From positions 1,364,001-1,428,000 of the forward strand of contig NZ_LN997848.1 in assembly GCF_001511835.1 (NCBI RefSeq): a stretch of DNA of 64,000 bases, in the 5' to 3' direction. The stretch's first letter is position 1; the number at the start of each line of letters is the position of its first letter. The DNA is from Magnetospirillum sp. XM-1 (GTDB lineage Bacteria; Pseudomonadota; Alphaproteobacteria; Rhodospirillales; Magnetospirillaceae). The notes beneath the pieces were generated by a model, which saw only the letters and a program-made list of their open reading frames with translations, was not told the origin of the DNA and did not search any database. Below, one piece after another: positions 685 to 4,958 of this stretch. The translations under genes were made by a program, and so were the position numbers.

Positions 685-1902
685 TCATATGCGTGGCCAC
701 CATGCTTCGCGGCCGAGCAACTTGTCGGCCACCGGCTCGCCGAATTCCATGATCAGGAACTGCACCGCCATGCCCGCCGCCACGGCGCCGACGAAGTCGA
801 ATACACGAACGGACAGGCCGGCGCTGGCGGCGTGGGTGGTGGCCGCCAAGGCGACGATGATGCCGGGCATGAAGCCGGCCAGAACGGTGAAGATGATCCA
901 TTCCATCCCGTTGCGCCTAAGTTCGCGGGCGCGCTGCAGGCCGGACCGGGCGTATTCCACGTTGATCCGGTTGAGGCGGAAGCCGTAGCGGGCGACCGTG
1001 GCCAGCATTCCGCCCAGGAACGCGTAGCAGAAGATGATCAGCCCGCTGAGCTCCAGCTTGACCCCGGTGGACCCGGTGATCGGCCACGCCACCCGGATGG
1101 GATCGCCGGAGGCGGTGGAACCGGGCAGGGGGCGTGGAACGAATTCCGCGTTGACGGTGACGTCGGTGAACATGTCGCGCCGGACCGGGCGGAAGGCGGT
1201 GAACTCCCCCAGATGGGCCAATTGGGAGGCGACGGTGAGGCCGGGGATGCGCCAGTGGATGTCGAAGCTGCCATGGGGCGGAACCAGATGGCTCCGCCAG
1301 GCGGTTTTGCTGCCATCGGAAAGGTTGGTTTCGTCCAGGGTCCATCCCTCGGCCTCGGGGAGAATGATGCCCGGGGTGGCCGTGCCGCCGTGGGGCGGCG
1401 TTTCGGCGATGACATGGCTGTCGAACAGGTTGGAGGGTACGATCAGCTTGGTCCGGGAATGCTCCAGCCGCAGCGCCCAGGGGGTGTCGTTCTTGATGGT
1501 GCCCACCACCAGGAGCGATTCGCCGAGGAAGATGCGCTCGTCGTCGCTGGTTGCCCGGATGCCGAGCTTGATGTTGACCAGCTTGTCCAGGGCCAGTTGA
1601 ACGTTGCTGTCGGAGGCATGAAAACTCAGATTGCCGTTGGTTGTCGCGGCGTTCTGGAGCTTCTGTTCGCAGACCGCGGCCCGAAGCTCGGTCGCCCCCG
1701 AGCCCAGCCGGCAGGTGTTGAGGGAGCCTTCCACCCGTTCCACGTCGCGCCTGAGCTGTTCGATCAGCTGGTCGGCATAGGGCCTTCCCGAGGTGTCGGG
1801 CGAGCGCACCTCGATCTTTTCCTGCGCCTGGGCCGGCGGCGCGCAGGCCAGCCAGCAGGCCGCCGCGATCATGGCTGCGAGGCGGAAGGCGGCGGGGGTC
1901 AC
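685..1902 (-). CDS. Exported membrane-anchored protein of unknown function (gene 4 of operon)
   Basis: I do not recognise a named family. The 405-residue product has an N-terminal signal peptide (hydrophobic stretch about 9-20, cleavage likely after PAQA near residue 26). A long, probably periplasmic region follows (about 27-283) with two Cys at about 64 and 78. Three hydrophobic segments lie at about 286-304, 334-355 and 365-385. The start is GTG at 1902, chosen because it lies 7 bases after the upstream stop; an in-frame ATG at 1872 would give a shorter signal peptide. It is the last gene of a compact four-gene operon, so it probably acts at the membrane together with the other products. 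Function is not inferable from sequence alone. Confidence 0.75.
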
Positions 1903-1909
1903 GACGGCG

Positions 1910-2617: not shown

Positions 2618-3558
2618 TGCCCAGCTCCCTTGCCGGTAGGCTTCTTGGTGGCCCCCGCCCCCAGGGGCTCGGACGTCCGGTATTCCGGCCCCGCCTCGCC
2701 GGGAGGGACCGGAGCGGTCATCCCGCGATATTCGGTCTCGATGGAGATGCTGCGCGCCCCCGCGTCGCTGAAATAGCGGACCCACCAGCGGTAGATCTGA
2801 TTCCAGTTCAGCTTCATGCCCTGCTGGATGCCGGGCTTCGACGGCGGGCCGAGCTCCTTGCCGAGGCCATATCCGATCACCGAGATGTTCCGCAGGTCGG
2901 GAAGCAGCCGCCGCCGCCTCAGATCGGTATAGAAGCTGTTCATCTCGGTGGTATTGGCCCTGTAGAAGTCGGCCTCTCCCACCTTGTCCAGATGGTATTC
3001 CAGGAAGTCCGAGAAGATGACCAGCAGGGAGGGTCGGTGTTCGGACACCACGAGGCTGATCGTCTCGGCCAGTGCGGTCTCGTTCTTGCGTGCCTGGGCC
3101 TGTTTCAGCATGACGGGGTTCAGGGCCTGGCCGATGCGGGTGACAAAATCCTGAAGGTCGGCGGCGATCAGGTTCTGGTTGCAGGCGTCGTACCAGGGCA
3201 GGAAGCCCTTGGGCGGGCAACTCGGCACGCAATCGTCGAACAGGATGTCGGAGGTGCGGGCGTAATCGCCGACGGTGCGGATCACCAGGTGGTCGCCTTC
3301 GCGGTTGAGTTCGGTCGCGAACACCTCCCAGCCCCGGACCAGCCGGGCAATGTCTTCGTCCTCGTAGGTGGCGGTGCGATCGACAAGGAAAACGACGGTC
3401 CGGGCCTCGGGAAACATCCTGCAATAGGGGTAGGCTGACTTGCCGGCCTGGGCCAGGGCGTCAGGGGCCGACAGGAGGGCGAGCAATCCCACCAGCATTC
3501 CGGCGATCCCGCGTGCGCCGATCAGCCTTCCGGCCCAGTGCCAAGCCCCGGAAGTCAT
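2614..3558 (-). CDS. Exported von Willebrand A-like protein (gene 2 of operon)
   Basis: The 314-residue product starts at ATG 3558, which overlaps the previous stop by four bases (ATGA). A basic N-terminus and hydrophobic stretch (about 17-30) with an ALAQA-type cleavage site indicate export. The mature part begins with RTVVFLVDRTATYEDEDIAR, resembling a vWA first strand with a MIDAS-like D-x-T-x-T. Strands such as LLVIFSDFLEY (after SEHRPS) and ISVIGYGLG fit later vWA strands. Several Cys near residues 45 and 105-125 may form disulfides. Nothing identifies a partner, but vWA domains usually mediate protein contacts, here possibly with the membrane proteins of the same operon. The upstream part of the longer open frame (3559-4320) is antisense-like noise and was excluded. 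Confidence 0.7.
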   Translation of the reverse strand: MTSGAWHWAGRLIGARGIAGMLVGLLALLSAPDALAQAGKSAYPYCRMFPEARTVVFLVDRTATYEDEDIARLVRGWEVFATELNREGDHLVIRTVGDYARTSDILFDDCVPSCPPKGFLPWYDACNQNLIAADLQDFVTRIGQALNPVMLKQAQARKNETALAETISLVVSEHRPSLLVIFSDFLEYHLDKVGEADFYRANTTEMNSFYTDLRRRRLLPDLRNISVIGYGLGKELGPPSKPGIQQGMKLNWNQIYRWWVRYFSDAGARSISIETEYRGMTAPVPPGEAGPEYRTSEPLGAGATKKPTGKGAGQ

Positions 3559-4958
3559 GCCGGTCCTCCCTGATATCTGTTGCCAAGGATCATCGCCCAG
3601 GCCTGCTGGGCGCTGCTTTCGCCGAAATAGAGCGGTGCCGGGGTCTTGCGAGCCAAGGTGTTGGCCCGCTGATACGCATGGATGCGCTGGGCGACCACGG
3701 CCGCGACATTCTCCATCTCGATGTCGAGGCGGAACTCGGCGCCATTGATGTTGACCTTCTGCTCGGCGAGGTCTCGGGCCAGTTCGTCGGCCCGGCGGGT
3801 GAGGTTGTCGTTGATCCGGCGGTAATTCTCGTCCAGTTCCCGCATGGCGAGGTCGAAGCGTTCCTGGCGGCGGGCGATCCGCCGGCGGCAACGGTTGACC
3901 TTGTCCAGCAGGGGTTCGTAGTCCGGGTGGGGGTCGTGGCGGATGTAGGACAGGAGCCCGCCGCCCAGGAAGACGCTCAGGTTGAGCAGCAGCAGCAGCA
4001 GGCCCTGGGCCCCCAGCGGCTGAAACGCCTCGAAGGAGTTGCGCTCGTTCTGCGGCGCCAGGACGGCGGCTCCCAATTGGGCGGCGCCTCCCGCCAGCGG
4101 CACCTGCCGGAGGGCGCTTCCCAGGGGGCCGCGACCGGAGGCAACCTCGTTCATGGCGCTCGACAGGCTCGAGACCAGGGGATTGGCGGTGCGGGACGTG
4201 GTCAGGTAGGACTGACGGATCACCGAAAGCTCGTAGAGGGAAAAGGTCACCAGCAGCAGGATCAAAGGGATGCCGACCCAGGTGCGCAAACGCTCGGGTG
4301 GGCGGCGGCGAACCCGGCACTGGCGGACGAACAATCCGATCAGGTGGCCGAAAAACACCACGGCCAGACCCATCACCCCGGCTCCGCCGTAGCCGAAGAT
4401 CGCTCCGGCCCGGAATATGTCCTCGAACACGCCCTTGTTGATGACCAGCTCCGTCAAGGAGAGAAGGGCGAGGAGCAGCAGATAGGGGGTTAGCCAGCGC
4501 CAGCGGGGATAAACCAGACGGATCAGGGGTTCGCGGCCGCCAAGCTCGCTGCGCAGATTCTCAAGCGACATGTCCACGTCATGGCAGGCGCGGAACTGCT
4601 GCACGCCAAGCACCGATGTCGGGCCGATCCGCCGTTCGAGTTCATCTTTGTCCAGGTCGTATTGCTTGGACAGGCGCTGGCGTTCCGCGTCGTACTGCTT
4701 GTTTCGCCGCTCCCCCAGGTCGGCATGCAAGCCGTCGACGGTCGACAGGCGGTTGGACAGGCGGGCACGGTACTCAGAAATGGCCTGGATCGCCTGATGG
4801 ACGATCATCAGCTCGTAGCTGCCAAGACTCTCCTGGCTGGTGGGCGGAAGTTCGTTCCTGCCCTCCTCCTCGCCTTTGACGGTATCGATATGAGAGTCGC
4901 AAGGGGCAGCGAACGACCAGTAGTAGGACAATCCTTCCGAGAAATCTATCGCAGCCAT
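3555..4958 (-). CDS. Four-helix membrane protein with coiled-coil flanks (gene 1 of operon)
   Basis: The first gene of the operon encodes 467 residues. A charged helical region (about 50-145) leads into hydrophobic segments at about 156-174, 187-211, 227-247 and 317-339. A long charged helix, probably coiled coil (about 345-435), rich in Arg and Glu follows. No signal peptide is seen. The layout suggests an inner-membrane scaffold with cytoplasmic helical arms. I do not recognise the family. The start ATG at 4958 is the first in frame after an AT-rich intergenic stretch. Its end overlaps the next gene by four bases, so the operon is translationally coupled from the outset. Confidence 0.75.
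   Translation of the reverse strand: MAAIDFSEGLSYYWSFAAPCDSHIDTVKGEEEGRNELPPTSQESLGSYELMIVHQAIQAISEYRARLSNRLSTVDGLHADLGERRNKQYDAERQRLSKQYDLDKDELERRIGPTSVLGVQQFRACHDVDMSLENLRSELGGREPLIRLVYPRWRWLTPYLLLLALLSLTELVINKGVFEDIFRAGAIFGYGGAGVMGLAVVFFGHLIGLFVRQCRVRRRPPERLRTWVGIPLILLLVTFSLYELSVIRQSYLTTSRTANPLVSSLSSAMNEVASGRGPLGSALRQVPLAGGAAQLGAAVLAPQNERNSFEAFQPLGAQGLLLLLLNLSVFLGGGLLSYIRHDPHPDYEPLLDKVNRCRRRIARRQERFDLAMRELDENYRRINDNLTRRADELARDLAEQKVNINGAEFRLDIEMENVAAVVAQRIHAYQRANTLARKTPAPLYFGESSAQQAWAMILGNRYQGGPA

What the first reader, a model, noticed from the sequence alone, without database searches (positions are those of the whole stretch)
685..4958. Uncharacterised four-gene membrane operon containing an NDT/TIR-like Rossmann protein and a vWA-like protein, inserted between zapE and mdh
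Seen in the sequence: four genes on the minus strand with ATGA overlaps or a 7-base gap. They encode a four-helix membrane/coiled-coil protein (467 aa), an exported vWA-like protein (314 aa), a cytoplasmic Rossmann protein (235 aa) with the DLTVFDLT and VLEVGIRFLSGRPMILLL pattern of nucleoside-deoxyribosyltransferase/TIR-like folds, and an exported three-helix protein (405 aa). Known: zapE and mdh are commonly adjacent in alphaproteobacteria, and NDT/TIR-like folds often act as NADases or nucleotide-processing effectors in bacterial immunity and stress. Inference: an accessory membrane-linked system in which a nucleotide-acting enzyme is coupled to envelope proteins; an anti-phage role is possible but unproved. 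The promoter gap is unusually AT-rich.
Basis: partly seen in the sequence, partly recalled or inferred. Interest (0 to 1): 0.8.

Follow-up and report, generated by a model that had tools for sequence, protein, structure and literature searches.

The report
Modular envelope cassette with periplasmic vWA
Next to the zapE gene of a magnetic bacterium sits an inserted four-gene cassette for a cell-envelope complex; its two-gene core occurs patchily in other bacteria with interchangeable partner proteins, which looks like a defence-type system, but its function has not been tested.

Summary
The four-gene operon is real and well drawn. It is an insertion in Magnetospirillum sp. XM-1: 9 of 17 genus genomes have an empty zapE-mdh gap, and five different inserts share one 30-50 bp site. 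Gene 2 is a secreted von Willebrand A (vWA) protein (AlphaFold pLDDT 79; best PDB matches vWA/I domains). With gene 1, a four-helix coiled-coil membrane protein (motif HDxxPDY), it forms a two-gene core found patchily in Alpha- and Gammaproteobacteria; two other branches of gene 1 also occur on plasmids. Partners vary: none found, an OmpA protein, a ZorA-like plus MotB-like pair usually with a nuclease, or, as here, the Rossmann protein gene 3. Gene 3 accompanies the core in five genomes. Its NDT/TIR-like fold is weakly supported, and the presumed catalytic glutamate (E98) reads D, Q, C, C in the others, so an NADase-type role is not the conserved function. Gene 4 was seen only here and in G030. 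Best reading: an exchangeable envelope sensor/output cassette, probably defensive (inferred). Against: in other families the core often lies beside zapE, mdh or rpoH. No Pfam, NCBIfam or PADLOC model matched the four proteins above background.

The parts
3555..4958 (-). g1: 467-aa inner-membrane protein, 4 TM, long cytosolic-type ends (coiled coils inferred), HDPHPDY motif at residues 341-347; core component 1
   Evidence: TM and motif position; family alignment and tree
2614..3558 (-). g2: 314-aa secreted vWA protein, MIDAS-like D60-R-T62, T166, S183-D184, conserved C46 and C110; core component 2
   Evidence: 23-row alignment; hhalign to vWA E 2.1e-6; model and PDB matches
1910..2617 (-). g3: 235-aa Rossmann-type protein without clear TM, weakly NDT/TIR-like, E98 not conserved in homologues
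685..1902 (-). g4: 405-aa protein with N-terminal signal-type segment, about 260-aa presumed periplasmic part and 3 C-terminal TM; among the loci scanned, found only here and in G030
4959..5082 (-). AT-rich (62%) leader between zapE and g1, not present in the empty sites; presumed promoter region
5071..5084 (.). 14-bp palindrome GATTGTATGCAATC overlapping the zapE stop codon, the only match of pattern GATTGNATNCAATC in the XM-1 genome
411..684 (-). original zapE-mdh intergenic DNA retained on the mdh side; right edge of the insert lies at about 682-685
660..679 (.). palindrome CCCCACCC-TCGG-GGGTGGGG just inside the right edge; not called as a terminator by the scan
   Evidence: sequence; scan
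5083..6246 (-). zapE, left flank of the hotspot
   Evidence: AFG1_ATPase 5.8e-112
1..410 (-). mdh (5' part in the window), right flank of the hotspot

Best explanation
The operon is a horizontally exchanged, modular envelope cassette inserted immediately 3' of zapE. SHOWN: a core of g1 (four-helix membrane protein) plus g2 (vWA protein with signal-type N terminus) recurs in scattered proteobacteria with different partner modules, and here its partners are g3 and g4. INFERRED: charge distribution puts both long ends of g1 and the HDxxPDY motif in the cytosol and a 71-residue loop in the periplasm; g2 sits in the periplasm and uses its MIDAS-like site to bind a peptide or envelope ligand; g4 adds a periplasmic domain on the same membrane. 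When g2 senses an intruder or an envelope perturbation, g1 passes the change to the cytosolic protein g3, which acts as a ligand-binding sensor or switch and perhaps, in XM-1 only, as an enzyme. The most likely purpose is defence against phage or other incoming DNA.
For: Empty site in 9 of 17 genus genomes; five bounded inserts at one 30-50 bp site. g1 tree: XM-1 with G030 (100/100), the g1 of same-genus same-site G005 in the OmpA-partner clade (100/98), the same-site G012 remnant with genus g5 (98/98, long and 38% filled row). g1 and g2 adjacent in 39 of 44 loci scanned. Partner modules: OmpA; ZorA-like plus MotB/OmpA-like with SNase or GmrSD_C domain; g3 in five genomes. Plasmid carriage of two other g1 branches, 24 and 7 records. 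vWA fold. TM layout.
Against: No PADLOC match for the four window proteins at E<=1. No P0001 relative on a phage or plasmid record. In 27 core-type loci of the nearer branches phmmer found no OmpA, SNase, ZorA-like or MotB-like relative (low sensitivity: it missed a Pfam SNase in L010), so most minimal pairs have no visible effector. Pairs lie beside zapE in L011, L054, L055, L056, beside mdh in L099, L117, L118 and convergent with a sigma-32 gene in L010, L012, L013, L067, L068, L098: recurrent neighbourhoods that also fit stable vertical inheritance. XM-1 has no SNase, so the nuclease argument comes from another branch. The g3 model failed (pLDDT 37).
Confidence: 0.4

Rival explanations
1. 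A non-defensive envelope-maintenance or stress module: g1 and g2 monitor or remodel the peptidoglycan/inner-membrane interface, with OmpA-type proteins as anchors in some lineages and g3/g4 in others; patchiness reflects niche-dependent loss.
For: OmpA partners; minimal pairs beside housekeeping genes, notably a sigma-32 (heat-shock) gene in L010, L012, L013, L067, L068 and L098 and zapE or mdh in seven loci.
Against: Three g1 lineages at one site in one genus; other cargo at the same site; plasmid carriage and nuclease partners in other branches.
Confidence: 0.35
2. One reading: g3 is an active NDT/TIR-type enzyme (NADase or nucleotide processor) that kills or arrests the infected cell when the membrane proteins sense infection.
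For: Pattern DADLTVFDLT...LEVGIRFLSGRPMILLL; E98 aligns with the NDT glutamate; one homologue weakly hits Pfam NDT and a PADLOC TIR model.
Against: The glutamate is D, Q, C, C in the other four genomes; weak profile match (Prob 11%); no confident fold.
Confidence: 0.13
3. A DNA-processing or uptake apparatus: the family handles extracellular DNA in the periplasm, as suggested by the SNase partners, for nutrition or competence rather than immunity.
For: SNase fused or within about 1.2 kb in 7 of 9 complete ZorA/MotB-type loci, a GmrSD_C domain fused in an eighth; an SNase ORF also lies about 4 kb from the pair in L010.
Against: No SNase in the XM-1 genome nor, by phmmer, in 27 core-type loci; competence genes were not searched for.
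Confidence: 0.08

Closest known systems
Zorya (ZorA/ZorB motor plus effector)
   Same: Inner-membrane complex, OmpA/MotB-type partner in some relatives, interchangeable effector modules; Zorya modularity is described in PMC11890865 (start of abstract and passages seen).
   Different: The window has no ZorA, ZorB or OmpA protein. In relatives with a ZorA/ZorB-like pair the matches are weak for L113 and L105 (PADLOC E 6.3e-5 at best, in the coiled-coil part, with unrelated coiled-coil families also hit; NCBIfam 9.2e-5, far under cut-off). The ZorB model matches L111 at 1.4e-27 but also the OmpA lipoprotein of L101 at 5.2e-16, so it may read only the OmpA domain.
MoxR-vWA ternary conflict systems (VMAP and kin)
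   Same: A vWA protein with the two MIDAS aspartates as presumed peptide binder, with variable effectors (PMC7159879, passages seen).
   Different: No AAA+ protein among the four genes, and the vWA has a signal-type N terminus.
Nucleoside 2-deoxyribosyltransferase (PF05014) / TIR-like Rossmann proteins
   Same: DADLTVFDLT and GRPMILLL segments, E98 in the place of the NDT glutamate.
   Different: P0003 has no Pfam hit, a homologue only one under the cut-off; the glutamate is not conserved in homologues.
SNIPE (membrane nuclease cutting phage DNA during injection)
   Same: Idea of defence at the envelope; some relatives pair the core with nuclease domains.
   Different: SNIPE is a membrane protein with a GIY-YIG nuclease on the cytoplasmic side (PMC13190303, passages seen); no sequence relation was tested.
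vWA/I-domain proteins (integrin I domains, Rpn10, TFIIH p44, INTS14)
   Different: Identity 8-14% in the rows shown; g2 has a family-specific C46/C110 pair and a shortened MIDAS motif.

Membership tests
von Willebrand factor A domain | vWA fold | tested here: met
von Willebrand factor A domain | MIDAS residues DxSxS ... T ... D | tested here: inconclusive
   D60 and S183-D184 invariant in 23 rows; T62 and T166 frequent; full DxSxS absent from g2; metal binding untested
Nucleoside deoxyribosyltransferase / TIR | Family profile match over cut-off | tested here: not met
   P0003 0 hits; P0006 15 bits against cut-off 28.8
Nucleoside deoxyribosyltransferase / TIR | Catalytic glutamate kept across the g3 family (its role is recalled) | tested here: not met
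   Present as E98 in XM-1, but D, Q, C, C in the four other genomes
Nucleoside deoxyribosyltransferase / TIR | Flavodoxin/Rossmann-like fold | tested here: inconclusive
   hhalign Prob 11, E 0.0028 against controls 0.26-0.76; AlphaFold pLDDT 37 with an alternating beta-alpha pattern only
Zorya | ZorA and ZorB encoded in the system | tested here: not met
   Window proteins have 0 PADLOC hits at E<=1
Zorya | MotA-type ion channel assembled as ZorA5B2 motor | not testable with these tools
   -
MoxR-vWA (VMAP-type) conflict system | MoxR AAA+ ATPase partner in the operon | tested here: not met
   No AAA+ hit among the four genes at E<=1
Anti-phage defence system | Protection against phage | not testable with these tools
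   needs an experiment
Horizontally exchanged hotspot cargo | Occupied and empty sites at one position, unrelated cargo | tested here: met
   9 empty of 17 genomes; five bounded inserts between matching flanks, two of them (G013, G015) without any g1-g2 relative seen

The most novel reading that the evidence does not exclude
The g1-vWA pair is the core of an undescribed class of envelope immunity systems: a periplasmic vWA sensor on a four-helix transducer that lineages plug into different outputs (OmpA-type anchors, ZorAB-like pairs with nucleases, or a cytosolic non-catalytic NDT/TIR-like ligand receptor as in the window), with the zapE-mdh gap as a local defence hotspot of magnetospirilla.
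Probability: 0.32. Interest if true: 0.87.

Novelty: new variant of a known kind. Interest (0 to 1): 0.62.

Why it matters
If the core is an immunity module, it adds a sensor type (a secreted vWA on a membrane transducer) that the PADLOC 2023 models searched here do not match, links it to ZorAB-like proteins and nucleases in one branch, and gives a natural test bed: several magnetospirilla differ by presence, absence or type of insert at one short site. Even if not defensive, it defines an unnamed two-protein envelope complex of scattered proteobacteria.

Tried and rejected
Pfam, PADLOC and NCBIfam on the four proteins gave nothing over a cut-off. The protein database (3 of 3 searches) gave self only for P0003, self plus one for the g1 alignment (only 7,998 candidates scored) and self plus the G030-type protein for the g3 alignment. 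PDB sequence search gave nothing meaningful (best E 0.12). The g3 model was unusable (pLDDT 37), so I did not fold-search it. A viral-contig scan for g3 found none; plasmids held no P0003 relative, plasmids and phages no P0001 relative. g4 was not searched on its own beyond HMM scans of fetched loci. G262 (E 3.1e-4) was dropped as a probable coiled-coil chance match after one look at its genes; weak hits G380, G646, G985 and G1039 and the hit G944 were not followed up; G1058 was looked at once. Of 31 plasmid records I opened 5. The NDT and vWA comparison sets kept 18 of 30 and 26 of 30 fetched loci, those passing a motif filter; the NDT filter requires the glutamate. The g1 tree left out L057, L058, L068, L104, L107, L119 and duplicates. 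The inserts of G013, G015 and G010 gave no PADLOC hit. Literature searches found no description of the system (held open-access library only). My note's tally of 10 empty sites was wrong; it is 9. TM positions were on gapped sequences and are superseded; one search used the wrong mdh frame and is superseded.
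Full report
WHAT IS THERE. The window is the chromosome of Magnetospirillum sp. XM-1: G000 has a 4,825,187-bp contig and 4,992,477 bases in all, exactly the chromosome plus 167,290-bp plasmid given in the abstract of PMC5073270 (search listing only). g1-g2 and g2-g3 overlap by ATGA, g3-g4 are 7 bp apart, GC3 is 0.82-0.87. 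The same four genes in the same order occur in G030, a different genus of the family, at a different locus, between a carbonic anhydrase gene and a glycosyltransferase gene (Pfam); the proteins are 36, 39, 37 and 31% identical. Among 99 genomes, XM-1 included, g3 was found only in XM-1 and G030, so the operon is accessory.

IT IS AN INSERTION AT A HOTSPOT. All 17 genomes of the genus have zapE. In 9 of 17 mdh follows at 269-312 bp (G002, G003, G004, G006, G008, G009, G011, G014, G016). In 5 the gap is filled and bounded by mdh (G000, G005, G012, G013, G015). In G010 it is filled but the contig ends. In G001 and G007 no mdh was found in the 17-18 kb fetched. The XM-1 gap next to mdh (window 413-684) matches the empty sites of ME-1 at 95% and AMB-1 at 91%, while the zapE-side leader (4959-5082) has no significant match in any of 9 empty sites. 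Measured on the AMB-1 empty site, the left match of the five bounded inserts ends at 59-73 and the right match begins at 98-123, that is, 29-51 bp apart in each. The inserts differ: XM-1 g1-g4; G005 an OmpA protein, a g1 relative and a vWA relative; G012 remnants of g1 and g2; G013 a malonyl-CoA-decarboxylase protein with two further genes; G015 an AT-rich 659-aa protein with a P-loop-like motif (Pfam hits under cut-off).

THE CORE FAMILY. Profile searches found g1 in 14 of 317 genomes of the order (one, G262, dropped), 13 of 385 of a class sample and 12 of 398 of a phylum sample (several weak, XM-1 counted in each). A genome-contig scan gave 15 loci, two of them duplicates of G030 and G057; they include Arenicellales and other Gammaproteobacteria, Niveispirillum, Geminicoccus, Dankookia and Roseomonas. 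In 44 loci scanned with family HMMs (the two duplicates included) a g2 relative lies next to g1 in 36 and, with a better HMM, in three more (L101-L103): 39 of 44. Of the five misses, L058 and L071 are at contig ends, L108 and L109 gave no hit in either scan and L107 was scanned only once. The motif HDxxPDY at the end of TM4 is kept in most of 38 rows but degenerates in the most distant branch.

PARTNERS ARE INTERCHANGEABLE. (a) No partner found: among 27 core-type loci, phmmer found no OmpA, SNase, ZorA-like or MotB-like relative, and g3 only in L003, L063, L099, L117 and L118; this test is not very sensitive, as it missed an SNase in L010 that Pfam finds. (b) With an OmpA-family protein: L032, L101, L102, L103, L109 (Pfam E 1e-16 to 1.9e-22) and, by phmmer, plasmid L185. 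(c) With a membrane protein weakly resembling ZorA and a MotB/OmpA-like protein: nine complete loci (L105, L110, L111, L112, L113, L183, L184, L186, L187), four of them picked by me from 24 plasmid records. In these a staphylococcal-nuclease domain is fused (L105) or within about 1.2 kb (L110, L112, L113, L183, L184, L187), 7 of 9; in L111 a GmrSD_C domain (an HNH-type nuclease domain, by recall) is fused instead; L186 has none. Control: G1000, G1022, G801 and G410 hold 5, 5, 4 and 3 SNases in 5.9-7 Mb, and each has one at the locus, where fewer than 0.02 would be expected in a 20-kb stretch; G811 and G359 have none at the locus, and XM-1 has none at all (arithmetic). The loci of this branch are related, so they are not independent events. 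(d) With g3: XM-1, G030, L063, G420 (L099) and G1060 (L117, L118), always directly downstream of g2 on the same strand. L099 and L117 were found by an HMM that did not contain them (E 1.3e-4 and 2.1e-4). g4 was found only in XM-1 and G030.

NEIGHBOURHOODS THAT CUT THE OTHER WAY. The pair lies beside zapE, convergent with it, in L011, L054, L055 and L056 (two other lineages), and beside mdh in L099, L117 and L118. It is convergent with a sigma-32 (RpoH-type) gene in L010, L012, L013, L067, L068 and L098. This may mean that the cassette tends to land just 3' of conserved genes, or that in those lineages it is a stable old resident.

EXCHANGE. In the g1 tree (38 rows) XM-1 pairs with G030 (100/100). 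The g1 of G005, same genus and same site, lies in the OmpA-partner clade (100/98). The G012 remnant, also same genus and site, falls with genus g5 (98/98), but it is a long, 38%-filled row of odd composition. So one short site in one genus appears to have received three lineages of one family. Branch (c) g1 relatives occur on 24 plasmid records (17 rhizobial or Microvirga, 6 Paracoccus, 1 Tistrella; 11 typed conjugative) and branch (b) on 7 (6 conjugative, each covering under 80% of the query). P0001 itself has no plasmid or phage relative.

HOW IT LIKELY WORKS. Shown: an exchangeable cassette, a vWA fold in a protein with a signal-type N terminus, a conserved membrane partner, changing partner genes. 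Inferred: g2 binds an extracytoplasmic peptide or envelope ligand, g1 transmits it, and g3 receives the signal in the cytosol as a ligand-binding protein that need not be an enzyme. Defence is the likeliest purpose because of the hotspot, the plasmid carriage and nuclease partners of sister branches, and the analogy to Zorya modularity (PMC11890865; start of abstract and passages), but nothing here tests it. The strongest points against are the minimal pairs in housekeeping surroundings, the lack of any known defence-family match and the rarity of g3.

NOVELTY. No search found the system in print (held open-access library only; PMC7159879 and PMC13190303 were seen as passages). Neither Pfam, NCBIfam nor PADLOC gave a hit over cut-off for the window proteins or, in Pfam and NCBIfam, for the g1 and g2 relatives tested. 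I rate it a new variant of a known kind (modular envelope-anchored accessory systems), because function is unproved, and give the bolder reading separately.

Noticed in passing
L105:7841-9307 and L111:891-2696: MotB/OmpA-like proteins fused to nuclease-type domains: SNase (PF00565, 3.4e-13) in L105 and GmrSD_C (PF07510, 2.3e-11) in L111, each beside a g1-vWA pair and a ZorA-like protein.
   Followed up: partly
L183, L184, L187 (rhizobial and Microvirga plasmids): Operon g1 - vWA - ZorA-like - MotB/OmpA-like annotated mostly as hypothetical proteins, with a thermonuclease-family gene adjacent upstream or downstream.
   Followed up: partly
L010, L012, L013, L067, L068, L098: The g1-vWA pair is convergent with a sigma-32 (RpoH-type) gene in two separate lineages.
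   Followed up: partly
L033:6913-9375: Another insert of the zapE-mdh hotspot: three genes, one with both malonyl-CoA decarboxylase domains (2.1e-88), no PADLOC hit.
   Followed up: partly
L035:2009-3988: AT-rich 659-aa protein with a P-loop-like motif (GSEGCGKSTL, Pfam hits under cut-off) alone in the zapE-mdh hotspot.
   Followed up: partly
window 5071-5084; L033 and L032 just after zapE: Palindrome GATTGTATGCAATC, the only match of its pattern in the XM-1 genome; similar words (ATTGCATACAATC, GATTGTATACA) occur just after zapE in two other inserts: a shared operator or an integration signature?
   Followed up: partly
L055:9282-10100, L012:2977-5028, L013:8863-11118: A divergently transcribed membrane-type protein upstream of g1 in family f4 and genus g5 with a similar N-terminal pattern by eye and no Pfam family over cut-off: possible third component there.
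   Followed up: no
L111:6287-8527: 746-aa protein with weak GHKL ATPase and Toprim (Topo VI-like) matches directly upstream of a g1-vWA operon.
   Followed up: no
L117:3050-3850 and L099:2143-2943: AT-rich 266-aa protein next to the g1-g2-g3 trio beside mdh in two genomes.
   Followed up: no
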